The notes under the pieces were generated by a model. The model was given only the letters and a program-made list of their open reading frames with translations. It made no database searches and was not told the origin of the DNA. 64,000 nucleotides of DNA from a virus, in IMG/VR virus record IMGVR_UViG_3300011113_000747, positions 1 through 64,000 of that record; one strand, written 5' to 3'. The position numbers and the translations under genes are program-made. This document shows positions 8,033 to 63,959 of the stretch, piece by piece (the stretch's first letter is position 1; the number at the start of each line of letters is the position of its first letter).

Positions 8033-8359
8033 ATGACACGCAAAGACATTAATCTACTTGCTGAAGCTTATAAAGAAGCATCTATGGGGGACTGGGAAAC
8101 TGAATGGGATAATATGACACCACCTCCGAGCGTGTTTGAAAGAGCTCTTGCTGATCCTACCAATTTTGATCTACATATTACTAGTGAAGAAGGTCTTGAC
8201 TGGGATAACTTTAAGATGCATCCTGTATATACGGTATATGAAATTGGTAGTAATGGTAAGTATGGTGACTATGAAGTGGTATCTAACTATGCTGATATTG
8301 AAGATATTGTAGATGCATTTGAAAAAAAGAACCCACAAGGTATTAAAGATAAAAGATAA
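8033..8359 (+). CDS. Capsid-tagged late protein, MTRKDINLLAEAY family
   Basis: 108 aa. The frame is open from 7985 but the late promoter (TTAAATAATACTATG) sets the start at 8033. Begins with MTRKDINLLAEAY, shared almost exactly by four consecutive genes; it resembles T4 capsid-targeting peptides and contains an L-A-E cleavage motif. The remaining acidic body is unrelated to its neighbours. Function unknown. Confidence 0.8.
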   Translation: MTRKDINLLAEAYKEASMGDWETEWDNMTPPPSVFERALADPTNFDLHITSEEGLDWDNFKMHPVYTVYEIGSNGKYGDYEVVSNYADIEDIVDAFEKKNPQGIKDKR

Positions 8360-8367
8360 ATAATATC

Positions 8368-8583
8368 ATGACACGCAAAGACATTAATCTACTTGCTGAA
8401 GCCTACGGAAATTCTGATGAGGTTGGTAATTTAGCTAGGCAATTTCGCTATAATGATAAAGTTAGGCAAATACTAAAAGACTTAGCACATCACGGTAAAA
8501 TTTCAAACTTGGAAGCAGATAATGATGCATTTGAAGCAATGTTATATGCTTTTGCAGCAGGTTACCATATGAGAAATAAATAA
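8368..8583 (+). CDS. Capsid-tagged late protein, MTRKDINLLAEAY family
   Basis: 71 aa. Promoter GATAAATAATATCATG; tag followed by a helical body (VRQILKDLAHHGKIS...). Same tag DNA as its neighbours but a different body. Function unknown. Confidence 0.8.
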   Translation: MTRKDINLLAEAYGNSDEVGNLARQFRYNDKVRQILKDLAHHGKISNLEADNDAFEAMLYAFAAGYHMRNK

Positions 8584-8587
8584 TATC

Positions 8588-8869
8588 ATGACACGCAAAG
8601 ACATTAATCTACTTGCTGAAGCTTTCAGTTCGACTAAACCTAAAACTATTAATGAACAGAATGGTGATGCTGTGTATGGTCTTATTAATACCGCTGATGG
8701 TCCAACATTAGTTGGTTTGTATGTATCACAAGAACAAGCTCAGCAAGCTCTTGATGCCTTTTTAGCAACCCCAGAAGGTGAGAATGAAACTGATTATTTT
8801 TACATTACACCACTTGCGTTAGGTCAACCAGTTAACTTTGATTACATTTATGACACGCAAAGACATTAA
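8588..8869 (+). CDS. Capsid-tagged late protein, paralog of 7187 gene
   Basis: 93 aa. Tag MTRKDINLLAEAF, then KTINEQNG and a body matching that of the 7187 gene (QAQQALDAF versus AAEQALQQA, PVNFDYIYD versus PAVWDLLNN). Two (L/I)-x-E sites (LAE and INE) suggest removal of the whole leader. The end overlaps the start of the next gene by 20 nt. Confidence 0.8.
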   Translation: MTRKDINLLAEAFSSTKPKTINEQNGDAVYGLINTADGPTLVGLYVSQEQAQQALDAFLATPEGENETDYFYITPLALGQPVNFDYIYDTQRH

Positions 8870-9041
8870 TCTTATCACTGAAGCCTATGAGAAGAATAAG
8901 GTTGATGCAGAACAACTCAGAATCGGAATTGAAGTTGAACTTGAACATACCGATGATGAGAAAGTTGCTGAGAAGATCGCACGTGATCACTTAGCAGAAG
9001 ACCCTCACTATTACACCAAGTTAAAGAAAGCTGGACTATAA
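8850..9041 (+). CDS. Capsid-tagged DUF5661-like protein
   Basis: 63 aa. Tag MTRKDINLITEAY, then the pattern '(Q)LRIGIEVELEHTDD...VAEKIARDHLAEDPHYYTKL', which matches the family annotated DUF5661, common in phages and bacteria but of unknown function. Start at 8850 rather than 8838, by alignment of the tag. Confidence 0.8.
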   Translation: MTRKDINLITEAYEKNKVDAEQLRIGIEVELEHTDDEKVAEKIARDHLAEDPHYYTKLKKAGL

Positions 9042-9049: not shown

Positions 9050-9454
9050 ATGAATCGCAACGATCAAAAATTACTCTCTAATCTCTATCTTGAGAACATT
9101 AATCAATTCGGCGCTAAGTCTGCTTCATCTGAAGAGATGGCTGGTATGTTAGCTAAGAATCCAGCAGCTGGTCAATCAATGGAGACATCTTATTCACTTA
9201 ATGCTCCTGAAGGTTATGAAGTTGATTATGATGGTAGTACTCTTACTGTAAAGAGAACAATCAATGGTCTTGAGTCTACAACGATGACAAAAATGGGTAA
9301 GAAGCCTATAGAAGAGGTTCAGAGAGATGTCGACTATCAAGTAGCTTATGATGAGTTTATGAGCAAAAGAGGTGGTGGAGCTAGCCCACAACAAGCAGCT
9401 GACGCAAAGAGTGCTTTCTTAGCTAAGCAGAAGCAGATTTACAGTAAGAAGTAA
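9050..9454 (+). CDS. Capsid-tagged late protein, unknown function
   Basis: 134 aa. Late promoter TATAAATAATAATATG. N-terminus MNRNDQKLLSNLYLENI is a diverged tag with L-Y-L-E. The rest is Ala/Gln/Lys-rich and soluble. Confidence 0.75.
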   Translation: MNRNDQKLLSNLYLENINQFGAKSASSEEMAGMLAKNPAAGQSMETSYSLNAPEGYEVDYDGSTLTVKRTINGLESTTMTKMGKKPIEEVQRDVDYQVAYDEFMSKRGGGASPQQAADAKSAFLAKQKQIYSKK

Positions 9455-9474
9455 ATAGCGAAAAAATCCGCTTT

Positions 9475-10176
9475 ATGTCCTTATTTGAAGAGAGATTTCT
9501 AGATAAGGTCGCATTTGTTTTACTCAACGCTATATTGTATACCGGTGAGTATAATGCGATCTTAGATAGGTTAAATCCAAACGAGAAGGTTAAACTCGTT
9601 AACTATCTTCCGGATGTTAAAATGGCTCCGGCGCAAAAGGAAAAGGTAAAGCAGGTTGTAATGACTAGCTTAAAGCAGGATCAAGCTGTTCCTAAAGCTA
9701 TTCCTTATACAGGTAGTTCCAATATAACCAAATTAAGGAAAGCTCTTATTGAGAAGCTTAAAAAGGAAGAAGGAGTTATTCCTCATATGTATAAAGACCA
9801 TTACGGAAATCTAACTATCGGTATTGGTCATTTAGTTACACCAAAAGAAGTTCCTTATTATCGTAATCGTACATTAACACAAAAGGAAATGTTAGACTTA
9901 CTTAATAAGGATATCGATTGGAAATTATCTCTCATTAAGAAAGACTTTCCTAAATTTAATTCATATCCTTTTGATTTGCAGATGATGATTGCAAATGGAT
10001 ACTTTAGAGGTGATCTTGCTGGTTCACCTCGCACTAAAATGCTTATCAGACAAGGAAAGTTTAAACAAGCTGCTGAAGAATATTTAGATAACGCTGAGTT
10101 TAAACGTGAAGCAAAAGTTAAATCTGGTGTATATAAAAGGATGCTTAAAAATGCGAACGTTTTAAGAAGCATGTAA
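9475..10176 (+). CDS. T4-type lysozyme (GH24) with N-terminal extension
   Basis: 233 aa. Residues ~90-230 form a T4 lysozyme-like glycoside hydrolase 24 domain that cleaves peptidoglycan: Glu99 (EEG), Asp108 (YKDHYG) and Thr114 (LTIGIGHLVT) have the same spacing as the T4 catalytic Glu11/Asp20/Thr26. Residues 1-80 are an extension not found in T4 gpe. Downstream of capsid-tagged genes, so it may be either the lysis endolysin or a virion lysozyme; no holin is adjacent. Confidence 0.85.
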   Translation: MSLFEERFLDKVAFVLLNAILYTGEYNAILDRLNPNEKVKLVNYLPDVKMAPAQKEKVKQVVMTSLKQDQAVPKAIPYTGSSNITKLRKALIEKLKKEEGVIPHMYKDHYGNLTIGIGHLVTPKEVPYYRNRTLTQKEMLDLLNKDIDWKLSLIKKDFPKFNSYPFDLQMMIANGYFRGDLAGSPRTKMLIRQGKFKQAAEEYLDNAEFKREAKVKSGVYKRMLKNANVLRSM

Positions 10177-10192
10177 GCTATAAATAATATAG

Positions 10193-10741
10193 ATGAAAGA
10201 TAGAGATACATTGTTGCTACAAGAAGCTTATGCTGCTATAAATACCCAACATCAGCTTAATGAATCATTTTTTAATACAGTTGCTGACGCCATTGAGTAT
10301 TTACAGAGTGGAGCTGGAGCAGCATTGTTAGTTGTGTTTCGTAAACAGATACATAGCATATTGAGAAAAGTAGGTGTACCATTAAAGGCTAATAAAAAAG
10401 AATTAATATCTTTACTAAATAAGGTTAACCAAGAACTTAGTTTATTACAAAATAATCAGCGTGCTAATACATTAGACACATTTAAATTATATGATGAGGT
10501 TATAGAAAAATTAAAATATAACTTAGAACCCACAACTACAGCTGCGTTGAGAACACAATCTAGAACACCTGGTATACGAACACATGCAGATGTTACTCAG
10601 TTAGGTAAGGCAATAAAAGGTGTTATTTATAGTTTAATTGGTAACATGCCTGACAGTAAATCATTACCAAAAACTAAAGCTGTTTTGATGATGGTATTAT
10701 TATCTATTGCTATAAAGCAAATTTTAGATTTATTTCACTAG
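10193..10741 (+). CDS. Capsid-tagged late protein with C-terminal hydrophobic segment
   Basis: 182 aa. Late promoter TATAAATAATATAGATG. N-terminus MKDRDTLLLQEAY contains L-Q-E, and LNES follows, a second candidate site. A hydrophobic helix sits near the C-terminus (AVLMMVLLSIAIKQIL), so membrane association after injection is possible. Function unknown. Confidence 0.75.
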   Translation: MKDRDTLLLQEAYAAINTQHQLNESFFNTVADAIEYLQSGAGAALLVVFRKQIHSILRKVGVPLKANKKELISLLNKVNQELSLLQNNQRANTLDTFKLYDEVIEKLKYNLEPTTTAALRTQSRTPGIRTHADVTQLGKAIKGVIYSLIGNMPDSKSLPKTKAVLMMVLLSIAIKQILDLFH

Positions 10742-26605: not shown

Positions 26606-28126
26606 TTACAAGTAAACAGACTGTGTACCTGGAGTGAACGCAGTACCGAGACCGGTTACAATTACAACGTGGTAATAGAGATTTGCACCAAAGATGTTAT
26701 CGACAACACCATAACGAGTAAGCAAGCCTACGCGTGGAGCGAAGTCGTTTGGACCGATGGTTCTCTGTACCATGATAGGAATGTAAGGGCAATAGATGAT
26801 ACCTGTATCATAGAACTCTGGACCCTTGTAGCCAAGCAATGCATATTCAAGAGCTGTTGAGCGTGTTGAATATCCAGTGTTTGTATAACCTGGGTTTTGA
26901 GCTTCTGTACGTGTATCACGGTAAACTGTGAATCTACCACCAACTGTACCAACCTTAGCAATACCTACACCTTGTGTGTTGACGTTTCCATCAACAGACA
27001 TCCACTGGAATTCAGGGAGCATTTCAAGGATAGCGCACACACGTGGTGTTGCTACGATGAAGTTTGCTGCCCCTCTTCTGTTGCGGACGGCGATACGGTT
27101 TGCTTCGATGATAAGCTTCTGATAGAAGTCACGATTGCGTTCTGCTAACCAGCGACCGTCAGCTGAGGCTGGACTCCAGAAAGAGTAACCTGCTGTAGCG
27201 CCACCGTTAAGAGCTGATTGGATCATTCTCATTACCATTTCACGGTCGATTTCTGCTTGAATTTCATACGACATTGCGTTGGTTAATTCAGCATCGATAT
27301 CGATACCGTTCATGTTTTTGAGATCCTGCTCTAATTCGATGGACCAGCGAGCACCTAATCTACGAGTACCTGCTTCAACGGAGGTTTTCTCGAAACTTAC
27401 TTCAACTGTAGGGATATTGGAGTTGATTTCGAAATTCTTAAGAATTTCTGCAACACCTTGATCAGGAGCGAGGAACTCGAAAGCAGAACCTGTACCAAGA
27501 CCACTAAGGGCCCCAGCAGAAGTACCTGTAAAGCGAGTTTCAAGGAACTGATATCCTAATTCGTTGTTGCCAGCGGAAGGTGTAACTGAATAGCTAACAC
27601 CAATCTGGTTGTGGGCTGCACCGGTAGCTGAAGCTGCAGTAGGTGGAGTACCATTAGTGAAGTAACCATCTGTGAGGTTAGCACCACCAAGGGTCTGTGA
27701 ACCATACTTGTAGCGAAGCGCGAATGCAAGACCAACTGGACCAGACATAGGCTGGACACCAACGATTTCGTTAGAAATAAGCTCTGGGAATGTACGTCTG
27801 ATCATCGGAATAAGGATCTTAGGAAGGCGTGCGTCACCAGTAGCATAGTTGTCACCATTTGGTACTGCACCACCGTAATTGTTCAGGTTAACTGAACCGT
27901 TACTGAATGCAGAACCGGTACCACCAGCTTGGTTAGCTTCACGGAAGCAGAACTGTTCTTGGTTCTCAAGAAGTACTGCAGTCGCATAGCGCTTATAAGA
28001 ATCCTCGATTGGAGCAACTGTATCTGACGAATAGTCAAGTACAGGAGCCCACTTTTCAAGAAGAGCGTCAGCTCTTGATTGATCGATGAAGGACTGTGGA
28101 GCGTTGATTTTCATACGTTTTATCAT
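26606..28126 (-). CDS. Major capsid protein, gp23-like
   Basis: 506 aa. HK97-fold T4 gp23 homologue: '(L)IPMIRRTFPELISNEIVGVQPMSGPVGLAFALRYKYG' matches the T4 'VRRAIPNLIAFDICGVQPM' region; FEKTSVEAGTRRLGARWSIELEQDLKNMNGIDID and C-terminal GPNDFAPRVGLLTRYG are also typical. The start at 28126 (MIKRMKINAPQ) is chosen because GAGG lies 6 nt upstream; the frame extends to 28138. It has an SD-bearing leader, unlike most late genes here. Confidence 0.93.
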   Translation of the reverse strand: MIKRMKINAPQSFIDQSRADALLEKWAPVLDYSSDTVAPIEDSYKRYATAVLLENQEQFCFREANQAGGTGSAFSNGSVNLNNYGGAVPNGDNYATGDARLPKILIPMIRRTFPELISNEIVGVQPMSGPVGLAFALRYKYGSQTLGGANLTDGYFTNGTPPTAASATGAAHNQIGVSYSVTPSAGNNELGYQFLETRFTGTSAGALSGLGTGSAFEFLAPDQGVAEILKNFEINSNIPTVEVSFEKTSVEAGTRRLGARWSIELEQDLKNMNGIDIDAELTNAMSYEIQAEIDREMVMRMIQSALNGGATAGYSFWSPASADGRWLAERNRDFYQKLIIEANRIAVRNRRGAANFIVATPRVCAILEMLPEFQWMSVDGNVNTQGVGIAKVGTVGGRFTVYRDTRTEAQNPGYTNTGYSTRSTALEYALLGYKGPEFYDTGIIYCPYIPIMVQRTIGPNDFAPRVGLLTRYGVVDNIFGANLYYHVVIVTGLGTAFTPGTQSVYL

Positions 28127-28188
28127 TTTGGACCTCATGGGATTGGATACCCAAGCAACTCAAGTCATACGATTGACTTCATTAAACC

Positions 28189-29034
28189 TTACTTCTTACC
28201 AAGTTGACCGAGATAAGAAGAAATTAGTGGATTATGGCTTTGACCTTTGTTGCTTTCTGTAACAACTTTAGGTGCATCACTCTTAACAGTGCGATTATTG
28301 AATGCTTGTTCCTTAATGGTTTCAAGCTGTTCAGCTTCTCTCTTGTCATAGAGTTTTGATACATAATCAAAATTCTCTTGCACAAACTTAAGATCTTTAT
28401 CAGAAAGAATCTTTTTGATGTATTCTTTCTTAGATACTGTCATTTTAGCGACATTAGACTCAATGAATAAATTCTTATTCATGTCATCAATTTTCTTCTT
28501 AAGTTGAGCGTTTTCTGTTGCAAGCTTATTTGCTTGTTGGGTAGCTTCATCAATTTGTTGCTTACCCTCAACAACTGCATCTTTGATAGACTCTTTCATA
28601 AGAGCTGAATCAACTGCAAGTGTCTTTCTTAAACCTTCAAGAATTGCAACTGCTTGCTTATTCTTAGTAGCTTCTTCGATTGCTTCTGCTGGAATAGCTT
28701 CGTCAATATAAGCTTCAAGGTATGTGGAAATATTATCTACAATCTGTGATTTGAATGTAGAAGCGGACTCATTTAATTCTGTTTCGTATTTCTTTACGAT
28801 ATTAATGAGCTTTGCGGAATTGTTTTTGTCAATAGCTTCAACGACCTTAGTAAGCTTTTCAGAGTGGTCTTTGTTGATAGCTTCAAGAAGTGACTTTAAT
28901 TTTGAAGCGTAAAGTTCATCTTGCTTAGCAAGAGCTGATTCAACATGAAGATTAAGCTTTTGTGTAAATGCATTTTCAATTGCATTAACTGACTCTTCTG
29001 ATAAGATGTTCTGTGGGATTAGGTCCTTAAGCAT
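28189..29034 (-). CDS. Prohead core scaffold protein, gp22-like
   Basis: 281 aa, almost entirely helical, Lys/Glu/Ala-rich with coiled coils. Position between gp21 and gp23 as in T4. The scaffold is expected to be degraded by the gp21 protease during head maturation. N-terminus MLKDLIPQNILSEES contains ILSE. Confidence 0.85.
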   Translation of the reverse strand: MLKDLIPQNILSEESVNAIENAFTQKLNLHVESALAKQDELYASKLKSLLEAINKDHSEKLTKVVEAIDKNNSAKLINIVKKYETELNESASTFKSQIVDNISTYLEAYIDEAIPAEAIEEATKNKQAVAILEGLRKTLAVDSALMKESIKDAVVEGKQQIDEATQQANKLATENAQLKKKIDDMNKNLFIESNVAKMTVSKKEYIKKILSDKDLKFVQENFDYVSKLYDKREAEQLETIKEQAFNNRTVKSDAPKVVTESNKGQSHNPLISSYLGQLGKK

Positions 29035-29338: not shown

Positions 29339-30001
29339 TTATAGTCTAGAGATAAATTTTAGGATTTGTTCTGTAAGAAATTTATCCATATCCTTTTTAG
29401 GTAATGTACTAATACCTTTTTGAAATGATTCATAAGCTTCTTCAAACTTACCATCAGCTGCAAGAACAAATTGTTTTGATTCAAGAATACCATTAACGAA
29501 AGCTTTTGGGCATGATGGATCTGCAACACAGTCAACAGCAATAAGTCTCATATTACGTACTGTATTAAATTTTGAACTCTCTTCTAATGTACCTAATGCA
29601 CGAGAAGACATACCAACTTTTACACCATCATTGATAAGTGATTTAACAATCAACCCACATGGTGTAGATAACACCTTTGATTTACCAACGTAAATATTAC
29701 CCTCGCAATGCATTTCAGTTACAAGGTGGCAAGCTCTTTCGAGATCAACATCAGCTGATGTTGGGTGGTTAAGTTCACCCATTGCGCGCTGTGTTTTAAT
29801 CATCTCTTCGTTGTAACGTCTTACTTCACGTTCAAGTTCTTCTTTTGGATATCTACGGTTATTCTTATTGACATCTTCTGCCATCATATAAGGTCCTTTG
29901 ATAAACAAAGACGACGGAGCGTTTCTATTTTGTTCTTCGTAAATGTACTCGAACTCTTCTTTAATTGGTTTTTCTACTAATAGATTTAGACGCATTGCCA
30001 T
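29339..30001 (-). CDS. Prohead maturation protease, gp21-like
   Basis: 220 aa. T4 gp21 family serine protease: catalytic His79 (MGELNHP) and Ser132/133 (VGMSSRALG). Cleaves head proteins after (L/I)-x-E; the many small genes with such sites near their N-termini are candidate substrates. Late promoter region TAAATAAATA just upstream. Confidence 0.92.
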   Translation of the reverse strand: MAMRLNLLVEKPIKEEFEYIYEEQNRNAPSSLFIKGPYMMAEDVNKNNRRYPKEELEREVRRYNEEMIKTQRAMGELNHPTSADVDLERACHLVTEMHCEGNIYVGKSKVLSTPCGLIVKSLINDGVKVGMSSRALGTLEESSKFNTVRNMRLIAVDCVADPSCPKAFVNGILESKQFVLAADGKFEEAYESFQKGISTLPKKDMDKFLTEQILKFISRL

Positions 30002-54201: not shown

Positions 54202-54660
54202 ATGAAAAAAGATTTAAAACTCATTGCAGAAGCTTATAACAAGGTTATTATTGAACAAATAACTGATGATTGGTTTCAACAAGGAGCATTTCAAGCTTAT
54301 AAAAAGCCAGCAAAAGAACCATATCAAGTTGCAAAGCAAGATGGTGTGTTACAGACCTTAGAAGGACCACAACAATACAAAGCTGGTTTTTATATTATTA
54401 CAGGACCGAAAGGTGAAAAATATTCGATGCCTCCAGAAAAATTCAATGAATTAAAAGATGATAACGGGGATGGTACAGCTTCACCTAAAAAAATTATTAA
54501 GCAAGTAAAATTAGCTGATTCAGATGGTGTTGTAAAAACTTCATGGGGAGCTGATTTACAATATAAGTCTGGGGAAGATTATATTGTTAAACATGGTCCG
54601 GGTGATTATGGTGTGGTAAAGAAAGATATTTTTCAGCAAACATACGTATCCGAACAATAA
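54202..54660 (+). CDS. Capsid-tagged late protein in the tRNA array
   Basis: 152 aa. Late promoter AATAAATATTAACATG. N-terminus MKKDLKLIAEAYNKVIIEQ has I-A-E and I-I-E sites of the tag family. The body has two related halves (residues ~45-90 and ~100-145: 'DGVLQTLEGPQQYKAGFYIITGPKGEKY' and 'DGVVKTSWGADLQYKSGEDYIVKHGPGDY'), an internal duplication of a small beta domain. Function unknown. Confidence 0.8.
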   Translation: MKKDLKLIAEAYNKVIIEQITDDWFQQGAFQAYKKPAKEPYQVAKQDGVLQTLEGPQQYKAGFYIITGPKGEKYSMPPEKFNELKDDNGDGTASPKKIIKQVKLADSDGVVKTSWGADLQYKSGEDYIVKHGPGDYGVVKKDIFQQTYVSEQ

Positions 54661-55786: not shown

Positions 55787-55797
55787 GTCTCGACAAT

Positions 55798-55872: not shown

Positions 55873-55890
55873 AAGGGCTGCATTTCAAAA

Positions 55891-55977: not shown

Positions 55978-55996
55978 ATAGTTATTTATTCAAAAT

Positions 55997-56084
55997 GCTG
56001 GTGTGGCTGAGCGGCCTAAAGCACTAGTTTTGTAAACTAGCGGGAGTGATCCCATCGTCAGTTCGAATCTGACCACCAGCTCCA
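55997..56084 (+). tRNA. tRNA with Thr anticodon (TGT) and class II arm
   Basis: Acceptor GCTGGTG/CACCAGC, T73. Anticodon arm CTAGT-TTTGTAA-ACTAG. Variable arm CGGGA-GTGA-TCCCATC forms a Ser/Leu-type hairpin. T-stem GTCAG/CTGAC, TTCGAAT. The body looks Ser-like, the anticodon Thr-like. Confidence 0.85.
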
Positions 56085-56090
56085 TCTTCC

Positions 56091-56270
56091 ATGAACAATC
56101 GCAGATCATTCTTCAAAAGACTCATTGGCTTAATCGCTGCACCAAAGGTTGCGAAAGCAACACACTCAAGCAACATAGTCAAAATGTGGACACCTGAAAC
56201 AGGTGTTACATATGGTGAGTATATTCATCCAGGCATTTGTATTAAACAAATTGACAAAACGGGGAGTTAG
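56091..56270 (+). CDS. Small protein with twin-arginine-like N-terminus
   Basis: 59 aa, MNNRRSFFKRLIGLIAAPKV: R-R-x-F-F-K followed by a hydrophobic stretch, resembling a short Tat signal. C-terminal 'VKMWTPETGVTYGEYIHPGICIKQID'. Its stop TAG (56268-56270) lies inside the 5' part of the next tRNA. Confidence 0.6.
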   Translation: MNNRRSFFKRLIGLIAAPKVAKATHSSNIVKMWTPETGVTYGEYIHPGICIKQIDKTGS

Positions 56271-56334
56271 TATAGAAGCAGTACATTGGCTCGACACGCC
56301 AAAGAAGAAGGAGCGTTACCTTCACTCCCTACCA
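56261..56334 (+). tRNA. tRNA-Val (GAC), C33
   Basis: Acceptor GGGGAGT/ACTCCCT, D-arm GTA-TAGAAGCAG-TAC (no GG), anticodon arm TTGGC-TCGACAC-GCCAA with C at position 33, T-stem GAAGG/CCTTC with AGCGTTA. Overlaps the upstream CDS by 10 nt; its CCA is part of the next gene's late promoter. Confidence 0.75.
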
Positions 56335-56345
56335 TAAATATATTC

Positions 56346-56828
56346 ATGAAGTTTGATGATGTTGTAAACGAAGCACTTTCACGTCTTTCGCCTGTAAAAC
56401 TATATAGAGGAGCTGAACCAGATGAGGATCCTTCGAGTGAAGTAGAAAGACCTTGGGCCCAAGGTCGTGAATTAGATTTTCGTGCTGCATTTATGAAAGG
56501 AGATGTTGATGAAGTTATCAGCATGCTGCGTAAGCATGCTGGTGATTCTGGTGTAAGAGCAAAAGGTATAAAGTCATATTCTTTGAATAGAGATGTAGCA
56601 AAAGAGTTTATTTTCGACAAAGGTATAATTAAAGAATTAGATATACCCGCTAAAAACATAATTTCATCAAGACAAAGACTACAAACAATTTTATCTTTAC
56701 CTGATCAACAAAAACAGCAACTGCTCGATCAGGGTGTAGGATTCAACGTTAATAGATTGCTTTCCAAATATAAATTTGCTGCATCTGATCCAGATACAGA
56801 GCAAGAAATAATGATTTACAAAAAGTAA
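56346..56828 (+). CDS. R-S-E mono-ADP-ribosyltransferase
   Basis: 160 aa from MKFDDVVNEALSRL. ART fold: Arg21 (KLYRG), Ser77-Tyr-Ser79 (STS-type), Glu152-Gln-Glu154 (ExE), the R-S-E triad of arginine-type ARTs such as T4 Alt/ModA. Late promoter CATAAATATATTCATG; start at 56346 not 56286. The N-terminus V-N-E could be a capsid tag. Expected to modify host proteins with NAD+; target unknown. Confidence 0.8.
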   Translation: MKFDDVVNEALSRLSPVKLYRGAEPDEDPSSEVERPWAQGRELDFRAAFMKGDVDEVISMLRKHAGDSGVRAKGIKSYSLNRDVAKEFIFDKGIIKELDIPAKNIISSRQRLQTILSLPDQQKQQLLDQGVGFNVNRLLSKYKFAASDPDTEQEIMIYKK

Positions 56829-56906
56829 GCCAACTATCGCTCCACCCGACAGATAGCTTTGCATGACGGTGCAAATGACCCTGAAAATCGCAAGGAGCAA
56901 AATCAT
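56829..56906 (+). ncRNA. Short structured segment between CDS and tRNA
   Basis: CTATC/GATAG and TTTGCA/TGCAAA hairpins. Possibly a tRNA remnant or processing element. Confidence 0.3.
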
Positions 56907-56981
56907 GGTTTCTAAGCATAGACAGCGATGCACACGATTGGTATTCGTGATAGAGGAGCGCAAATCTCCTAGGAGCCTCCA
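56907..56981 (+). tRNA. tRNA-Thr (GGT)
   Basis: Acceptor GGTTTCT/AGGAGCC, D-arm GCAT-AGACAGCG-ATGC, anticodon arm CACGA-TTGGTAT-TCGTG, T-stem AGGAG/CTCCT with loop CGCAAAT. Shares its unusual elbow with the other short-arm Thr tRNA. Confidence 0.82.
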
Positions 56982-57001
56982 TTTTTCAGTGGAACCTTAA
57001 A

Positions 57002-57017
57002 GGAACTACGTTATAAT
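57002..57017 (+). promoter_or_regulatory. Early promoter of the 57055 gene
   Basis: GGAACTACGTTATAAT. The start would be near 57024, so the ATG at 57055 gets a ~30-nt leader; GTG at 57022 is too close. Confidence 0.75.
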
Positions 57018-57054
57018 AAAAGTGAAGTTAAAACAAAAACTAAACTTAAAACAT

Positions 57055-58071
57055 ATGACAGAAACGTTAGAACAACTCAAAGAAACAGTCAAAAGCCATA
57101 CCATTGTGCCTTTTAGCGCACGTAATATTGCTTGCGAAAAAAATACACTCATTATCAATGACCGATATGTTGTTGATCAACCAAAGAAAGTTCTCGAGAC
57201 TCTAGGTATTCGAGATAATCTCATCAAGGAAATTTTTGATAAACCTGATGTTAATTGGGGCGCCATTCGTGATGCTCTTAATACTATCGATGATAAAAAG
57301 TCTTTTGGTGGTATTGTGGATAAAAACAACCGCATGCTTAATCTCACTAAGGCTGTAAAAGAAGAAACTCAGCTTGACTTTGATAAGCGTCTTGATGAGC
57401 TTTTTAATGCTATTGATGGTAGCCAAAGTAATGAACTTCAGAGTGCAATTTGGAGTCCAAGTGATTGTGCAGTTCATGTCAATTCTATTAATCGCTCAAG
57501 TGATATTGATTGCGGTGCTGGTGATATTTGGAAGTTTGGTACAACTACTATCATTGGAGACGCTATGCAACAGTTCAAGAATTATTTTCTTCGTCTAGTC
57601 TGCACAAACGGTATGACCACACGAGATAACATTGCATATCGAGCTGCTACAGCTTCTGTTAATATTGCTAAGCAGTTTGTGAAGTTTGCTAGCGATGGTG
57701 CTTTTGCAAATCAAATTACCCCTCGTGTTAATCGTCTTCGCAACAATCGAGCTTCTCTTTATGAGCTTACCTCTGTTGCTGATTGTCTTAACGCAGAACA
57801 GCGTGATACGTTTATGCCTGAATATGGCTATACCGTTGAACACTTTAAGAACGCTGGTCACCCAGTCGACGGCTTCTCAGCAGCTCGTAAGAAATTTGTT
57901 TATACAAATGAAAATCTTTATGATGTCTTTAATGTTGCAACCAATCTCGCAACACATCAGCGCGATGTGATCGGTGATGCTGCAGCAATGAGGCTCAATA
58001 AGGTTGCTGGTGAAATCTTCTCAAAAGGTCCGAATCTTGATATTCAGATTTTAGATCTTTGGAAGAACTAA
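57055..58071 (+). CDS. DUF932-like protein
   Basis: 338 aa from MTETLEQLKE (an upstream in-frame GTG at 57022 is unlikely because of the promoter). 'AMQQFKNYFLRLVCTNGMTTRDN' matches the DUF932 phage/plasmid family. Soluble alpha/beta. Function unknown. Early expressed; strong terminator follows. Confidence 0.75.
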   Translation: MTETLEQLKETVKSHTIVPFSARNIACEKNTLIINDRYVVDQPKKVLETLGIRDNLIKEIFDKPDVNWGAIRDALNTIDDKKSFGGIVDKNNRMLNLTKAVKEETQLDFDKRLDELFNAIDGSQSNELQSAIWSPSDCAVHVNSINRSSDIDCGAGDIWKFGTTTIIGDAMQQFKNYFLRLVCTNGMTTRDNIAYRAATASVNIAKQFVKFASDGAFANQITPRVNRLRNNRASLYELTSVADCLNAEQRDTFMPEYGYTVEHFKNAGHPVDGFSAARKKFVYTNENLYDVFNVATNLATHQRDVIGDAAAMRLNKVAGEIFSKGPNLDIQILDLWKN

Positions 58072-58078
58072 AAACTTC

Positions 58079-58122
58079 GGTGGGTAACTAGTACATAAAA
58101 AATATTAGTTACCCACCAAAAA
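58079..58122 (+). terminator. Hairpin terminator
   Basis: 12-bp stem GGTGGGTAACTA/TAGTTACCCACC (58079-58090 with 58106-58117), followed by an A-rich tract. Ends the DUF932-like gene. Confidence 0.75.
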
Positions 58123-58138
58123 ATAGTAGATTTATAAA

Positions 58139-58154
58139 GGAAAGTAGCTAAAAT
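58139..58154 (+). promoter_or_regulatory. Early promoter variant
   Basis: GGAAAGTAGCTAAAAT, the TAAAAT variant also used at 6485. Predicted start near 58161, leading into the 58161-58531 region. Confidence 0.6.
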
Positions 58155-58160
58155 AAATAC

Positions 58161-58531
58161 ATAAGAGCGACAAAAAGCTCGATGATCTTTGATAAATTCC
58201 GTGGTGGCAGAACAATGGGTCGCCAGCCCATAATGCACTAAGCAACGTCTGAAAAGACGCCAGGTAGGTTGAAAAAGTTATGCCGGATAAAGCTGAAATA
58301 ACCAAGATTGGTCAAATCTTGAGTGACGTAAGAAGACAACAAATCGTTATTATACGACTGATGGCTGTATTGTCTTGGAGGTAACCATTCCTCTCTATCA
58401 TTAACAATGAGAGTAATTAACTCATTGGATAGTGGCTGAATAATCCGACATAATGGAGACTTGTGAGTAGTCAGGAATCTCACCCACACTAATTTCTCTC
58501 GCAAGAGAATAGAAAGGAAACACACATACAC
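58161..58531 (+). ncRNA. Long non-coding leader, possibly structured RNA
   Basis: About 370 nt between the promoter at 58139 and the CDS at 58532. Contains several short stems, e.g. GAGC/GCTC (58167-58182) and AACGTCT/AGACG (58244-58258). A 34-codon ORF (58280-58384) is possible but weak. May be an sRNA or regulatory leader. Confidence 0.4.
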
Positions 58532-58747
58532 ATGAATAAAAACGCATATGAAATCAGGCTAGATGTTCTTGGTATGGCTCATGGTACTATCATGAATCAA
58601 TACCACGAAAAGATTGGTCAGCTTCGCGATAATGCAAATCGTACAAATCATCAGTTTGATGTTGAGCTTATTGATAAGCTTATGCCGAAAACGGCAGACA
58701 TCATTGCTTATGCAAACGAATTGTATTCCTTCGTAGAAGGCAAATAG
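58532..58747 (+). CDS. Small helical phage protein
   Basis: 71 aa, MNKNAYEIRLDVLGMAHGTI... resembling small proteins common in marine T4-like phages. Preceded by GAAAGGAAA (SD-like). Function unknown. Confidence 0.78.
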   Translation: MNKNAYEIRLDVLGMAHGTIMNQYHEKIGQLRDNANRTNHQFDVELIDKLMPKTADIIAYANELYSFVEGK

Positions 58748-58797
58748 AGTCAAAGTGGTGCTGGATAACCACATTAAACACCAGTAAATATATACAT

Positions 58798-58893
58798 GCT
58801 CCAGTAGCTCAATTGGTAGAGCGGAAGGCTTATACCCTTCGTATGCACCAGATTAGTGCGCGGTTGTCGGTTCGAGCCCGGCCTGGAGTACCA
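58798..58893 (+). tRNA. tRNA-Ile (TAT) with long variable arm
   Basis: Acceptor GCTCCAG/CTGGAGT, canonical D-arm and anticodon arm GAAGG-CTTATAC-CCTTC, T-stem GTCGG/CCGGC. A 25-nt variable arm with GCAC/GTGC hairpin is unusual. The UAU anticodon (AUA codon) is rare in bacteria, which use lysidine-CAU. Confidence 0.9.
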
Positions 58894-58899
58894 ATTTTC

Positions 58900-59343
58900 G
58901 GGGGCGTTCTGGTTTCGACTCAATTGGTTGAATCAAGTTCGCATGCAGAGGTAGACTAGCTGGCCTCTATAAAAGCAAGTCAAAAAACATAAACGCAGAA
59001 GACACTGAAGTCGATGCCCTCTTAGCACAAGCTGAGTACATCTTCAACAACGCTGACGAATTCGTCACCGCTGATGTTGAAGAAGCTCTCTTTGCCTAAG
59101 CAAAAACAGAAATGGATCCTATTAAAATTTCTGAGGTAACCAATAGGTTGAGCTGAACAATGTATGCTCTTAAATCAAACATTGGGGTGACCTCGGACTC
59201 TTCACCGAAGTAGGTAGGCTCTAAAACTTAGGTTGATACGCCATGCAAACCTGTTGCCAATGAAATTGCAAATGTATCTAAGCATGTAGACAACTTAGCT
59301 GATACTATTGAACACAGGGGTTCGACTCCCCTCGCCTCCACCA
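58900..59343 (+). ncRNA. ssrA: tmRNA with a 34-codon tag
   Basis: 444 nt. 5' GGGGGCG-TTCTGG-TTTCGAC and 3' GGGG-TTCGACT-CCCC, acceptor CGCCTCC, A-CCA form the tRNA-Ala-like domain, with the G3-T70 pair. Resume codon GCA at 58995 after TAAAC; tag ORF to TAA 59097-59099 reads AEDTEVDALLA...EEALFA (34 aa encoded). One-piece type. Rescues stalled ribosomes; typical tags are 8-15 aa long, so this is notably long. Confidence 0.93.
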
Positions 59344-59362
59344 TTTTAGAATAAATAAAGAC

Positions 59363-59884
59363 ATGTACCAGCTGTTTTTAGACGATGAACGTATGCCAGA
59401 AGATGTATTTTGGATTAACATTCCAAAAGGAGATTACGTTATCGTGCGTACTGCAGAACAATTTAAGCAGTATATTCAAGAACATGGATTACCTTCACAT
59501 GTTTCATTTGATCATGACTTAGGGGATGATCCTAATGGTTATGACTGCGCAAAGTGGTTAGTAAACTATTGCATTGAAACAGATCAAAAGTTTCCATCAT
59601 ATACAGTACACTCTCAAAACCCAATCGGTAAAGATAACATCATTGGATATATTGATAATTACAAACGAGTGTATGGTGAAAGTGCAAAGCTAACATTCGA
59701 GCAATACTTTTATATCACTGAAAAGAAAAAGAGTATTCATGACCCTGTAAGACCAGGTATACTCAAGAGACAAACAAAGGGTAAGATGACTTGCTCGAAA
59801 GCGAGAGCGTTAAAGTCTAAGCAGAAGAACAAAGGTAATAATACAGCTAAAGCTGCTCAACGCTACCTAAACTATCATTGTTAA
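59363..59884 (+). CDS. Cyclic-phosphate-processing receiver-like protein
   Basis: 173 aa. 'LFLDDERMPED' ... 'VSFDHDLGDDPNGYDCAKWLV' and 'YTVHSQNPIGKDNIIGYIDNY' match the cREC/cyclic-phosphate-processing receiver family. Residues ~125-173 are a Lys/Arg-rich tail. Late promoter AATAAATAAAGACATG. Possibly linked to RNA end processing or anti-signalling (inference). Confidence 0.78.
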   Translation: MYQLFLDDERMPEDVFWINIPKGDYVIVRTAEQFKQYIQEHGLPSHVSFDHDLGDDPNGYDCAKWLVNYCIETDQKFPSYTVHSQNPIGKDNIIGYIDNYKRVYGESAKLTFEQYFYITEKKKSIHDPVRPGILKRQTKGKMTCSKARALKSKQKNKGNNTAKAAQRYLNYHC

Positions 59885-60321
59885 TAGTTAACTTCGATAT
59901 TATCATCGAATATATTCTTTGCTCCTACATCGATTAGAGCATCAAGCTCATTCATAATAAAGTCTTTACCGATGAGTACTGGGTATTCATTATTACCTCT
60001 ATTACCAATAGAGAATTTAACATTATCAAATTCTTTATCTCCTATTTTGATATTGAATTCAACTACTGGTCTATCTTCAAAATTGCCAGCACCCACGTTA
60101 ATCTTAATATGATTCACGACAGGTTTAGTGAGGGTTCTACCATTAACGGTATTGAATGTTACTTGATCATCTTTAACCGATACACCTTCACCATGTAATA
60201 CATTGTAAGCACCATTACCGCTATCAACCTTAGCTTGAACTTCACCAATATCATTGATATAGATGGTTTCAATTAAACCAATTACTGTCTTTTCTTGGAA
60301 ATATTGTTTGAATTTAATCAT
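59881..60321 (-). CDS. Capsid-tagged retropepsin-like protease
   Basis: 146 aa from MIKFKQYFQE (upstream frame to 60357 rejected because the tag motif and the previous stop fix 60321). Aspartic-protease-like: 'VQAKVDSGNGAYNVL' (D-S-G), 'YPVLIGKDFIMNELDALIDVG'. Resembles PF05618/retropepsin-like proteins. Probably a capsid-delivered protease (inference). Confidence 0.72.
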   Translation of the reverse strand: MIKFKQYFQEKTVIGLIETIYINDIGEVQAKVDSGNGAYNVLHGEGVSVKDDQVTFNTVNGRTLTKPVVNHIKINVGAGNFEDRPVVEFNIKIGDKEFDNVKFSIGNRGNNEYPVLIGKDFIMNELDALIDVGAKNIFDDNIEVNY

Positions 60322-60322
60322 A

Positions 60323-60661
60323 TTATTCGCAACCACATCCTTTATCTTGATGTTCATATTCGAGCCAGTGATAAACTGAAGATATATAGTCAGATGCTTT
60401 GGTAATTTTAGCAGCTACCCAACCTTCAAGACCATCAACTTGATCAACCATTTCATAGAGCTTTTGAGAATATTCTGCAAGCTTTCTAAGATCAGCTTTA
60501 GCCATATGGATTTCACTTGGATCACTTTCATCTACGTTGTGACCTTCTGCATCACTAGCCATACCTGGTTGGTGGGTTTCTGGTGAGAGATCAGCTGCTC
60601 TTGCTATAAAAATAGCGTTTTCATATAAAGCTGCAATAGAAAGTTTGTCCTTTTTATCCAT
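60323..60661 (-). CDS. Capsid-tagged helical protein
   Basis: 112 aa. MDKKDKLSIAALYEN contains L-Y-E. C-terminus 'LEGWVAAKITKASDYISSVYHWLEY' is a pattern frequent in marine T4-like phages. Late promoter TTAAATAACTATATG. Ends CGCE. Function unknown. Confidence 0.78.
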   Translation of the reverse strand: MDKKDKLSIAALYENAIFIARAADLSPETHQPGMASDAEGHNVDESDPSEIHMAKADLRKLAEYSQKLYEMVDQVDGLEGWVAAKITKASDYISSVYHWLEYEHQDKGCGCE

Positions 60662-60665
60662 ATAG

Positions 60666-61268
60666 TTATTTAATACGTTCCCTTATTGCATTATACGTTT
60701 TATTTACCAAAATACTTGGTATCATACGAGACATACCTTGTTTGAAAAGATCTATATCATTATCGAGAGCAGCTTTTCTGAGTTTTGAGGCACTCATACC
60801 TTCAACGCCTTCTGAATCTGGATCTCTTTCACCTGCTGATTCAAACTTATAGTCTGCAAATTGAAAAGGGATATTACCCTTTGAATCTGGTTTACCATTA
60901 TATCTCTCAATCAATCCTTCAAATTCAGGAATTCGATCACTACCTGCAATATGAATTATATTTGCATATCCTTTCTCTTGTAAATCTTTTAAAACTGAAA
61001 TTAAATTAGCACCGGATTCCAAAATTTGAATATTTGGTGGTGTCATATACTTCAAAATTTCTTCCTTTTCTTTAAAAGATAGCGGATCCTTTTTATTATT
61101 TTGTGTATGTGAAGGTACGAGAAACCCATTACCATTTACTCTTTTAGTAACTTCAGCTAGTTTATTAATAAGCTTCTCATGACCAACAGTAGGTGGGTTA
61201 TATCTACCGTATGCAATAACTGCAGTTTTACCTTGTTGTTCTAATATAAATTGTTTAAATGATTTCAT
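60666..61268 (-). CDS. Capsid-tagged nucleotidyltransferase
   Basis: 200 aa. MKSFKQFILEQ (I-L-E) then a HIGH-type cytidylyltransferase fold: 'GRYNPPTVGHEKLI' (T-V-G-H) and 'GMSASKLRKAAL' (S-x-S-x-x-R). Similar to NMN/cytidylyl transferases; substrate unknown. Coupled to the ligase gene (ATGA overlap at 61265). Confidence 0.8.
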   Translation of the reverse strand: MKSFKQFILEQQGKTAVIAYGRYNPPTVGHEKLINKLAEVTKRVNGNGFLVPSHTQNNKKDPLSFKEKEEILKYMTPPNIQILESGANLISVLKDLQEKGYANIIHIAGSDRIPEFEGLIERYNGKPDSKGNIPFQFADYKFESAGERDPDSEGVEGMSASKLRKAALDNDIDLFKQGMSRMIPSILVNKTYNAIRERIK

Positions 61269-62536
61269 TTTGTTTGTACACCTCCTGGTTTACCTGTTTG
61301 AAAATTAGCAGCTGAAAATTCTTTTCTATCTACAAACTTAGTAATTTCAGGACCACCTTGTGTACGTGATACAGCATAACCTTCTGGTGGTGTGGTTTTC
61401 CAATTACCACCACCTTGATCCATATATGTACCAAGATAAGAATTTTTAGTCATTTCGTTGAAGATTTTAACGAGATTATTCTTTAAAGTTGCAACTATTT
61501 TTGTAATATCAAAAACTGCTTTGATAGATTTTTTAGCTCCTTTAAGTTCCTTCACCGCAGCTTCAAGCTGAGCTTTCTTTTTCATCTTACCAGACTCACT
61601 TTTAAGAGCATTCAATTCTTTCTGAAATCTACCAGCAATATATTCAATAAACTGCTGAGTTGAAATGGAGGTGTTGTCTAAAAACTTACCACCTCTAATC
61701 TCAGAATTAATATATGTTTTCATTTCCATAGCATATTTTTGTATCATGGAAAAATCGATTGTTTTAAGTAATGCACTAACTTGAGCTTTTTTCTTATCTA
61801 CATCCTTTAAAAGCATATTGAGAATACGCTTATTTGGGTTAGCTTGCTTGTCGATAAGAACGTTAAATACAAATACATCTTTTGAACGTGCAAATTCAGT
61901 TGGTGATGTTGTATATTTTTTAACTCTAAGAATACCACCAACTACTTCATACTCGATATGAATAGCAACACCTATCTGTGAATTTTGAATTTCTCTACCA
62001 AAAGGACTTTCTGGTGATACAGCATATTTAATGGTATTAGGTTTAAAAGAAATAAATGTATTAGTGTTACGAATACCATCTATTGTATTTGGTGTTTCTG
62101 TTTGTTTAATTTGATTATCAAACATATAATCCATTTGATAAATACCCTTCAAATTTAATGATGGTATATATTGAAGAGCTAACTTAAGCTTTTCAGCTAA
62201 ACCAGGACTGTTAGAGTGGTTTGCATCAATGTCATCTTCTGTATAATTTATCTTTGGATTTTTTGCAAATGCTGATTTACTTGCAACGAAGAACTTACCC
62301 TGAGGGTCTTTACCTGCAACAATAGCAGGTGAGCCATCAAACTTTGTAGAGATCTGATAGTCAGTTTCACTTACAAAGTATTCAATAGCCTTATCGATAT
62401 ACTCCAAAGCCTCGATCACACCATCACGACCTTTATTGATAATATTTTCTTCTAAATGGTCAATATGCTTGACAGCTCCTTCAACTTCATCGAAGAACTC
62501 TAGAAATATTTTATTGTATTGTTTAAATGTTATCAT
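61265..62536 (-). CDS. Capsid-tagged ligase-like nucleotidyltransferase
   Basis: 423 aa. MITFKQYNKIFLEFF tag. 'ISTKFDGSPAIVAGKDPQGKFFVASKSAF' carries the K-x-D-G ligase motif (KFDG at ~residue 66) and downstream motifs IYQMDYMF and HIEYEVV; resembles DUF6267/RNA-ligase-like phage proteins. Substrate unknown. Confidence 0.72.
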   Translation of the reverse strand: MITFKQYNKIFLEFFDEVEGAVKHIDHLEENIINKGRDGVIEALEYIDKAIEYFVSETDYQISTKFDGSPAIVAGKDPQGKFFVASKSAFAKNPKINYTEDDIDANHSNSPGLAEKLKLALQYIPSLNLKGIYQMDYMFDNQIKQTETPNTIDGIRNTNTFISFKPNTIKYAVSPESPFGREIQNSQIGVAIHIEYEVVGGILRVKKYTTSPTEFARSKDVFVFNVLIDKQANPNKRILNMLLKDVDKKKAQVSALLKTIDFSMIQKYAMEMKTYINSEIRGGKFLDNTSISTQQFIEYIAGRFQKELNALKSESGKMKKKAQLEAAVKELKGAKKSIKAVFDITKIVATLKNNLVKIFNEMTKNSYLGTYMDQGGGNWKTTPPEGYAVSRTQGGPEITKFVDRKEFSAANFQTGKPGGVQTK

Positions 62537-62540
62537 TTTT

Positions 62541-63959
62541 TTATTGATTGAGAGTTATACCAACACTCGTTCTTGTTGGATCAATTGACATATTAATAAT
62601 AAAGCCAGTGCTAAACATTTCGAAAAATCTAGGAATTTCACTATTTAAATTACCTTCACCTGTAAATACAACTGGGTAAAACTTTTTAGTTTCATCATTC
62701 GTGAATACAATACCATTGAACAATTTATCATTATGGTAACACGCTAAATGAATAGCAGCAATCAAAGGTCTTAACTTTGTGGAAACTGGATCTAAAAATT
62801 CCTGATAATTATCAGGTGTTACAACATTTTTAATACCCACTGTTAAATCATCAATATTAGCGCCTTTATAATTTCTTGTATTAACAAAACCATTAATAAT
62901 ATCATCATAAGATAGATTATTATCTTTCATAAAGAATGTAGCTATACTAGTAGAAAACGACATGTTTTTTCCTTTAATTTTAGAAACTTTATTATAGCTC
63001 GTCTCAATAGTTTTTATTACACTTTGTTTAACTTTTTGATCTCTAGCAGGGTTAGGATCAAAAACAACAGAACTAATCACATTTTTTATTTCTTCTATAT
63101 TATCAGTATCTTTAATTGATTTTGAAATTTTTGCTCCATGCGCAGCCCATCTAAGCTTACCAATAACGTTGCTGACAGAATTTATTACTTTCTGTTTAAC
63201 CGCTTGAAGACTTTTAAGACCTAAATCCGCAGAATTATTACTTAAAATTTCTTCTAATTTTTTAGGAGTTTGTAAAGTATAACCATCACCACCTAACCTA
63301 GCACCTGTACCTTTAACTTCATATTCACCAAACCCTGGAAAATCTAAATCACCCACGTCGCCTTTTTTGGCATCGGAAATTAACGTACTAATTAATTCAC
63401 CTTTACCCACACTGACTGTATTTACAAGAAACTTAACATTATAAAGTCTTTCGAATGCATCTTTTGCATCCTCAGGCATTTCAAATAAATCTATAAACTC
63501 ACTAGGTAATGTATTATACCAACTTTTAACACCTTTTGATAATAACATATTTCGAAATGGTGTATTAGGTGAACCTTGTAGTTTAGTAAATTTGGAAATA
63601 GTTTCGTTGTTTATTTTTAAATCATAGGACTTTAAAATATACATTACAGGGTTTAATACATCTGTAGTATAAGCAGAATTACCTTCATACCACCCTTTAG
63701 TCTGTAAAATATTATCAATAATTGTTTCGAAAGACCCACCACCAGCACCTTCAAATTTTTTATTTGTATTAATTTCTCTCTTTACCTTTTTAACAAAGTC
63801 ATCTGTAACAGGTTCGTTAATGATGGTCTCACCATTTTTTAAAACTGTAAGTTGAGCATCTTCTCTTATAACCTTGTAGATATCTTGCAAAGTTTTTGTC
63901 TGTTTGTGTTTTTTTCTATTACAAACCTGTTCATATAGTTTTGTTAAATTATAGTCCAT
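62541..63959 (-). CDS. Capsid-tagged PD-(D/E)XK-like protein
   Basis: 472 aa from MDYNLTKLYEQV (63959). Tag L-Y-E. 'GDVGDLDFPGFGEYEVKGTGARLGG' fits a D...E-x-K nuclease core. Otherwise helical; C-terminus reads 'TSVGITLNQ'. Starts just before the window end. Likely injected with DNA (inference). Confidence 0.65.
   Translation of the reverse strand: MDYNLTKLYEQVCNRKKHKQTKTLQDIYKVIREDAQLTVLKNGETIINEPVTDDFVKKVKREINTNKKFEGAGGGSFETIIDNILQTKGWYEGNSAYTTDVLNPVMYILKSYDLKINNETISKFTKLQGSPNTPFRNMLLSKGVKSWYNTLPSEFIDLFEMPEDAKDAFERLYNVKFLVNTVSVGKGELISTLISDAKKGDVGDLDFPGFGEYEVKGTGARLGGDGYTLQTPKKLEEILSNNSADLGLKSLQAVKQKVINSVSNVIGKLRWAAHGAKISKSIKDTDNIEEIKNVISSVVFDPNPARDQKVKQSVIKTIETSYNKVSKIKGKNMSFSTSIATFFMKDNNLSYDDIINGFVNTRNYKGANIDDLTVGIKNVVTPDNYQEFLDPVSTKLRPLIAAIHLACYHNDKLFNGIVFTNDETKKFYPVVFTGEGNLNSEIPRFFEMFSTGFIINMSIDPTRTSVGITLNQ

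What the first reader, a model, noticed from the sequence alone, without database searches (positions are those of the whole stretch)
56346..63959. An arsenal of enzymes apparently tagged for capsid delivery
Beyond small proteins, the tag precedes a retropepsin-like protease, a nucleotidyltransferase, a KxDG ligase-like protein and a PD-(D/E)XK-like protein, and possibly the R-S-E ADP-ribosyltransferase. Injecting several enzymes at once would allow action before transcription.
Basis: inference. Interest (0 to 1): 0.8.

Follow-up and report, generated by a model that had tools for sequence, protein, structure and literature searches.

The report
Phage enzymes tagged for capsid packaging
A marine T4-like phage encodes several enzymes that carry, right at their front end, the same short removable label that T4 uses to load proteins into its head, and relatives of one of these enzymes with the label have already been found inside purified virus particles, so the phage probably injects a ready-made enzyme kit together with its DNA.

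Summary
The nucleotidyltransferase (60666-61268) and the retropepsin (59881-60321) begin with the T4 IPIII/IPII capsid-targeting register (M..F..[FY][IF].E|); the ligase-like DUF6267 protein (61265-62536) has a spaced, IPI-like form. The PD-(D/E)XK-like protein has a different, strongly conserved leader. The ADP-ribosyltransferase call is weak. The genome encodes the matching gp21 protease, gp23 and a gp55-like late sigma factor.

The tag is real: 3 in-frame matches against 0.3 expected in this genome, and 101 hits in viral contigs for the tag pattern against 0 for a swapped control. It is modular: homologues without it start at the enzyme domain. It predicts packaging: in S-CREM2, 5 of 6 tagged proteins (SAM hydrolase, kinase, cytidylyltransferase, two unknowns) were detected in virions by mass spectrometry. 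All four virion-detected NTases whose N-termini I read (S-SM1, S-SCSM1, S-CREM2, S-SZBM1) are tagged.

Best reading: late-made internal-protein cargo, loaded through the prohead core, trimmed by gp21 and injected as a first-response kit. Packaging is well supported by homologues; injection and targets are inferred. It is a T4-type mechanism used for an enzyme set not linked to this tag in the papers I could search.

The parts
62541..63959 (-). PD-(D/E)XK-like protein, 472 aa, with conserved leader MDYNLTKLY...VIRE|D
   Evidence: 32-sequence alignment: the only residues at 90% or more in the first 184 are M1, L5, Y9 and E33, then G185/G187/E188, G203/D204, E214-x-K216; leader low pLDDT in the model
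61265..62536 (-). DUF6267, RNA-ligase-like fold, tag MITFKQYNKIFLE|F
   Evidence: Pfam DUF6267 1.2e-77 starting at residue 23; residues 1-19 pLDDT<50, rest confident; ligase fold Z up to 9.2; K65, D67, G68 nearly invariant
60666..61268 (-). Nucleotidyltransferase (cytidylyl/NMN-adenylyltransferase-like), tag MKSFKQFILE|Q
   Evidence: PHROG 3041/395; exact IPIII register and good SD; homologues in virions
60323..60661 (-). Small protein with EAY/LYE-type leader MDKKDKLSIAALYEN
   Evidence: related to a pelagiphage HTVC008M protein with leader MTRYTKTMAEAY
59881..60321 (-). Retropepsin-like protease, tag MIKFKQYFQE|K
   Evidence: Pfam Zn_protease 7.8e-12 from residue 13; exact register; register kept in relatives L088, L092, L095
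56346..56828 (+). Putative R-S-E ADP-ribosyltransferase, 9-residue tag MKFDDVVNE|A
   Evidence: motif by eye; no family hit; 9-residue register as in virion-detected S-SZBM1 NTase MRFRQFIIE|A
56333..56340 (+). Late-promoter-like CATAAATA, 5 nt before the ART start
54202..54660 (+). Small PGDYG-domain protein with leader MKKDLKLIAE|AY and late promoter
   Evidence: Pfam PGDYG 2.9e-8; leader and promoter
29339..30001 (-). gp21-type prohead protease, the predicted tag-removing enzyme
   Evidence: Pfam Peptidase_S77 1.3e-33, PHROG head maturation protease; late promoter 5 nt before start
28189..29034 (-). gp22-like scaffold/core protein
   Evidence: position between gp21 and gp23, sequence; inference
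26606..28138 (-). gp23-type major capsid protein
   Evidence: tblastn to cyanophage gp23, e.g. 4e-65
8033..9041 (+). Four consecutive small genes with near-identical leader MTRKDIN(L/I)(L/I)(A/T)EA(Y/F) and different bodies
9050..10741 (+). Two more small genes with related leaders (9050-9454, 10193-10741), each with exact TATAAATA 5-6 nt upstream

Best explanation
These enzymes are internal (ejection) proteins of a T4-type phage. They are made in the late phase and drawn into the prohead core by an N-terminal capsid-targeting sequence. The gp21 protease then cuts after an [LIVFY]-x-E motif and leaves the mature enzyme in the head, and the enzyme is injected with the DNA into the next host, where it can act before phage transcription. 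The cargo is a first-response kit: a ligase-fold DUF6267 protein and a nucleotidyltransferase that are usually encoded side by side (nucleic-acid or NAD repair), a retropepsin, a PD-(D/E)XK-like protein and possibly an ART. Shown here: tag, modularity, protease, late-type genes, and virion detection of tagged homologues (published). Inferred: packaging in this phage, cleavage, injection, and the targets.
For: Register: T4 residues 4 and 7 set targeting, 8 and 10 processing (PMC9026906); T4 IPII/IPIII match the same pattern and IPI shows the spaced form. Non-random: 3 against 0.31 expected; 101 against 0 for a residue-swapped pattern, 76 of 80 continuing in frame for 50 residues or more or to the contig end, in 32 unrelated clusters. 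Modular: DUF6267 starts either M(A)KNTHLEHLED or tag|KNTHLEHLED; NTase either MKKVVFTFGR or tag|...FTFGR. Tag outside the fold. Virion link: S-CREM2 5 of 6 tagged proteins detected against 47 of 213 others, p=0.003, p=0.0002 without known structural proteins; three phages pooled 5 of 8 against 125 of 711, p=0.006. Tagged virion-detected NTases in S-SM1, S-SCSM1, S-CREM2, S-SZBM1. Negative side: NTases of RaK2-type jumbo phages have no tag and sit beside a methyltransferase. gp21 in all four tagged contigs of 100 kb or more. Late-promoter motif upstream of 9 of 21 tagged against 51 of 382 other ORFs, p=0.0014; gp55-like sigma factor present.
Against: No virion data for this phage. Cyanophage authors themselves allow that the enzymes co-purified (PMC10665884, PMC9602691). 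Three small tagged proteins (one in S-SCSM1, two in S-SZBM1) were not detected. Untagged NTases occur in gp21-positive phages. DUF6267 of S-SZBM1 is untagged and was not detected. The retropepsin site FQE is not the classical L/I-x-E. None of the five genes in the 59.9-64.0 kb block has a late-promoter motif within one mismatch of its own; they may be read as one operon. Homologues in the counts are not independent.
Confidence: 0.72

Rival explanations
1. The tagged enzymes are core or scaffold-associated assembly factors: they enter the prohead by the tag but are not injected as effectors; they act during assembly or leave with the core.
For: IPIII has a role in head morphogenesis (PMC9026906); the tag binds the core. 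The same tag would serve such a role.
Against: Tagged homologues are found in finished particles; the cargo is catalytic and highly variable between phages (32 clusters in 80 loci), which suits effectors better than assembly factors.
Confidence: 0.15
2. The enzymes are ordinary intracellular phage enzymes; the N-terminal stretch is a common amphipathic start, and virion detection is carry-over from lysate.
For: Authors name carry-over as possible; untagged homologues exist in other phages.
Against: 101 against 0 pattern control; exact IPIII register; untagged homologues begin at the domain; tag predicts virion detection.
Confidence: 0.08
3. Only one subunit of a complex needs the tag: DUF6267 and NTase travel together and either one carries the signal (piggyback). 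This is a refinement of the best explanation, not exclusive with it.
For: In 14 of 14 non-redundant loci where the NTase starts at its domain the neighbouring DUF6267 is tagged; in 7 of 7 where DUF6267 starts at its domain the NTase is tagged (counted from the list).
Against: Loci are related and the expected number of doubly untagged pairs is only about 1.4, so 0 is not significant; several pairs are doubly tagged; no complex has been shown.
Confidence: 0.3

Closest known systems
T4 internal proteins IPI, IPII, IPIII and their capsid-targeting sequence (Mullaney and Black 1996; reviewed in PMC9026906)
   Same: N-terminal 10-19 residue leader, aromatic residues at 4 and 7, hydrophobic-x-E cleavage site, gp21 protease; checked against T4 IPI-IPIII
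   Different: T4 IPs are small basic proteins; here the leader sits on folded enzymes of 146-423 residues, and on unrelated enzymes in relatives
T4 Alt, injected ADP-ribosyltransferase
   Same: An enzyme delivered from the head that modifies host RNA polymerase
   Different: Alt is processed at both ends (PMC9026906); the window ART is only 160 residues, shows no family match and has a 9-residue leader
NMNAT/cytidylyltransferase found in cyanophage virions (S-SM1, S-SCSM1, S-CREM2, S-SZBM1)
   Same: Homologues of the window NTase, detected in particles and, as read here, tagged
   Different: The passages of those papers I read do not mention the tag, and two call carry-over possible
Head-packaged ARTs, Macro, NADAR and Nudix proteins and polyvalent proteins (PMC9503650, PMC5512222)
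   Same: Idea of enzymes packaged in heads and acting early in infection
   Different: There inferred from fusions to MuF or portal and gene neighbourhood; here from a removable targeting leader, with other enzyme families

Membership tests
T4-type CTS-bearing internal proteins | Leader with aromatic residues at 4 and 7 | tested here: met
   NTase F4/F7, retropepsin F4/Y7, DUF6267 F4/Y7; not met by the PD-(D/E)XK-like protein, offset by one in the ART, so those two are not filed as members
T4-type CTS-bearing internal proteins | gp21 cleavage motif L/I-x-E at the leader's end | tested here: met
   NTase I-L-E, PD-(D/E)XK I-R-E at 33; relaxed hydrophobic-x-E in retropepsin (F-Q-E), DUF6267 (F-L-E), ART (V-N-E)
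T4-type CTS-bearing internal proteins | gp21-type protease and gp23 in the same genome | tested here: met
T4-type CTS-bearing internal proteins | Present, cleaved, in the mature virion | not testable with these tools
   No particles of this phage; tagged homologues are virion-detected in four cyanophages, cleavage not reported in the passages read
T4-type CTS-bearing internal proteins | Injected into the host | not testable with these tools
   needs infection experiments
Covalent nucleotidyltransferase/ligase superfamily (DUF6267) | Ligase adenylation fold | tested here: met
   VIA-align top 50 all nucleic-acid ligases, Naegleria Rnl Z 9.2, T4 Rnl2 7.5, Rnl1 7.2; Foldseek alone gives no hit at E<=0.001
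Covalent nucleotidyltransferase/ligase superfamily (DUF6267) | KxDG lysine | tested here: met
   K65, D67, G68 at 90% or more in 42 sequences; superposition on the ligase lysine not inspected
PD-(D/E)XK nucleases | E..D..(D/E)xK motif on the helix-strand-strand core | tested here: met
   E188, D204, E214-x-K216 near invariant on H188-193, E205-207, E211-216
PD-(D/E)XK nucleases | Restriction-endonuclease-like fold | tested here: inconclusive
   no informative structural match
ADP-ribosyltransferase superfamily | R-S-E motif and ART fold | tested here: inconclusive
   motif by eye; no Pfam, PHROG or PDB match; fold not predicted
Retropepsin-like (RimB/RloA) proteases | Family profile and catalytic DSG | tested here: met
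   above the Pfam cut-off, below NCBIfam curated cut-offs

The most novel reading that the evidence does not exclude
T4-type phages of the sea use the capsid-targeting leader as a general, swappable delivery code for enzyme kits. Its most widespread cargo, the ligase-fold DUF6267 protein with its nucleotidyltransferase partner (plus a Zeta-toxin/P-loop kinase-like protein in HTVC008M and a retropepsin, fused to RimK in Mosig), is an injected repair kit against host immune damage to RNA or NAD. It is carried as a complex in which one tag suffices. A second leader class (W/Y..L..IY ... [VIL]xE or LxEAY) serves the same gate.
Probability: 0.3. Interest if true: 0.88.

Novelty: new variant of a known kind. 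Interest (0 to 1): 0.7.

Why it matters
The tag can be read from sequence, so the injected protein set of thousands of uncultured T4-type phages becomes predictable. It offers a mechanism for why NMNAT, kinases, SAM hydrolase and a Cas9-like nuclease keep turning up in cyanophage particles, which authors had to leave open as possible contamination. It also marks DUF6267, a family of unknown function, as a likely injected ligase-fold enzyme and a good first target for anti-defence assays.

Tried and rejected
A simple rule that phages with gp21 tag the NTase was rejected: untagged NTases occur in gp21-positive contigs. A loose tag pattern (hydrophobic-x-E near the start) did not predict virion detection (p=0.13) and was dropped. 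The broad LY..E pattern for the second leader is not above chance (21 found, 14.9 expected); only the LxEA[YFL] form is (10 against 1.05). S-PM2 was considered as an untagged, undetected control, but its annotated start is probably wrong (an internal MKRFTNTYVKE|G), so it was not used. Foldseek alone gave no significant hit for either model. PDB sequence search gave nothing useful for the NTase or the ART. Pfam gave no family for most tagged proteins from the pattern scan. DUF6267 is named in no paper of the held library. The N-terminal peptide was among the search patterns, so tag conservation was judged from hits found by other peptides, from neighbours, and from the independent phage collection.
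Full report
What the region is. The window lies in a 184,542-base virus record with a T4-type head module: gp21-type prohead protease (Peptidase_S77, 1.3e-33), gp23, a gp22-like core protein and, outside the window, a gp55-like late sigma factor at 67847-68167. Its closest relatives by NTase and gp23 are Kyanoviridae such as cyanophages, pelagiphage HTVC008M and the Methylophilales phage Melnitz. On the minus strand between 59.9 and 64.0 kb lie five genes in a row: PD-(D/E)XK-like, DUF6267, nucleotidyltransferase (NTase), a small protein, retropepsin. The ART-like gene is at 56.3 kb on the plus strand.

Is the tag there? In T4 IPIII the first ten residues suffice for packaging; residues 4 and 7 mainly set targeting, 8 and 10 processing, and gp21 cuts after L/I-x-E (PMC9026906). 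T4 IPII and IPIII read MKTYQEFIAE|A; IPI keeps MKTFKEF but has its L/I-x-E-type site further on (ITE|A). The NTase (MKSFKQFILE|Q) and retropepsin (MIKFKQYFQE|K) fit the ten-residue register; DUF6267 (MITFKQYNKIFLE|F) fits the spaced IPI form. In the whole genome 3 of 1284 in-frame Met codons match against 0.31 expected from shuffles. The ART leader MKFDDVVNE|A is the same pattern shortened by one; a virion-detected S-SZBM1 NTase, MRFRQFIIE|A, has that form too.

Is it more than a common start? A DNA pattern for SD-Met-Lys-x-Phe-x-x-Phe-hydrophobic-x-Glu-Ala gave 101 stretches in 2.9 million viral contigs; the same pattern with Phe4 and Glu10 exchanged gave none. Of the 80 loci read, 76 continue as open frames of at least 50 residues and fall into 32 clusters, among them NTases (10), DUF192, weakly ART-like proteins and many unknowns. 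Every one of these contigs of 100 kb or more carries gp21 (4 of 4); the contigs with gp21 are the ones with gp23.

Is it a detachable module? Yes. DUF6267 homologues next to NTases begin either tag-then-KNTHLEHLED or M(A)KNTHLEHLED. NTases begin either tag-then-domain or MKKVVFTFGRMNPPT. In RaK2-type jumbo phages the NTase begins MVYGRFNP..., next to a DNA methyltransferase, without tag. In the DUF6267 model residues 1-19 are disordered while the rest is confident (mean pLDDT 86). In the PD-(D/E)XK-like family the only residues conserved at 90% or more in the first 184 are M1, L5, Y9 and E33; the spacer varies, and the residue two before E33 is mostly hydrophobic (VLGE, ILGE, VIGE, VIRE). That is what a targeting helix plus a protease site would look like, but of a second type.

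Does the tag predict packaging? S-CREM2 has 219 genes and 52 proteins detected in particles (PMC10665884). Of six proteins with the tag five were detected: SAM hydrolase MKDFDSFLEE|F, an unknown MKDLHSFLTE|Q, APH-like kinase MKRFDAFLTE|E, an unknown MQTFSMFFSE|D, cytidylyltransferase MKNFSSFLTE|A (p=0.003, or 0.0002 without known structural proteins). The detected Cas9-like nuclease has FASFMAE|A about 19 residues in. Across S-CREM2, S-SCSM1 and S-SZBM1 the strict pattern at gene starts gives 5 of 8 detected against 125 of 711 (p=0.006). All four virion-detected NTases that I could read are tagged: S-SM1 MKKFSAFLNE|A (PMC3037559), S-SCSM1 MKSFLQFLKE|A (PMC9602691), S-CREM2, and S-SZBM1 (PMC9146016). 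The authors did not exclude carry-over; the tag is an argument against it.

Timing. TATAAATA-type late promoters stand 5-6 nt before most small tagged genes, the ART, gp21 and a core gene, and are enriched in tagged ORFs (9 of 21 against 51 of 382, p=0.0014). None of the five genes of the 59.9-64.0 kb block has a close match of its own; they overlap or adjoin and may be one operon (inference). Late synthesis of such enzymes makes most sense if they are used in the next infection.

What the enzymes are. The DUF6267 model aligns to nucleic-acid ligases in all 50 top rows (Naegleria Rnl Z 9.2, T4 Rnl2 7.5, Rnl1 7.2) and keeps KxDG: a ligase/nucleotidyltransferase fold, activity untested. The NTase is cytidylyl/NMN-adenylyl-like. 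The retropepsin is RimB/RloA-like; in pelagiphage Mosig the domain follows a RimK ATP-grasp behind a tag-like start (MQVQPFKNYLEE|A). HTVC008M has a Zeta-toxin/P-loop kinase between DUF6267 and NTase. Ligase, kinase and NTase together suggest repair of RNA or NAD after host immune attack; this is inference.

Tag on one partner. In 14 of 14 non-redundant loci whose NTase starts at its domain the adjacent DUF6267 is tagged; in 7 of 7 whose DUF6267 starts at its domain the NTase is tagged. The sample is related and small, so this is a lead.

Verdict. The mechanism is T4's; its use for this enzyme set, and as an explanation of enzymes in cyanophage particles, was not found in the papers searched, though head-packaged ARTs and other NAD/ADP-ribose enzymes have been proposed on other grounds (PMC9503650).

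Noticed in passing
8033-9041 (+): Four consecutive small genes share a near-identical leader (MTRKDIN[LI][LI][AT]EA[YF]) but have unrelated-looking bodies; at least two have a late promoter 5 nt before the ATG. It looks like leader reuse with cargo exchange.
   Followed up: partly
window, e.g. 9050, 10193, 29330, 30001, 56346: TATAAATA-type late promoters end 5-6 nt before the start codon, implying nearly leaderless late mRNAs.
   Followed up: partly
L157 5001-5469: The only close homologue of the ART is interrupted: the frame from its Met stops after 62 residues and the match continues in another frame (real decay or assembly error).
   Followed up: no
L163 7704-10313 (S-CREM2 gp12): A Cas9-like nuclease detected in virions carries the tag-like FASFMAE|A about 19 residues in; the start codon may be misannotated.
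   Followed up: no
L284 1529-2914 (pelagiphage Mosig): Tag-like leader, RimK ATP-grasp and retropepsin in one protein, annotated as glutathione synthetase.
   Followed up: partly
L158 5342-6004 (HTVC008M): Zeta-toxin/P-loop kinase-like protein with start MIPFILKE|G between DUF6267 and NTase.
   Followed up: no
L283 1889-3061 (S-PM2 p139): Annotated start of the cytidyltransferase is probably too far upstream; an internal MKRFTNTYVKE|G would give a tagged protein.
   Followed up: partly
50788-58893 (+): Cluster of 21 predicted tRNA genes interspersed with small genes and the ART-like gene.
   Followed up: no
59363-59884 (+): cREC (cyclic-phosphate processing receiver) domain protein with a late promoter 5 nt upstream and no tag.
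   Followed up: no
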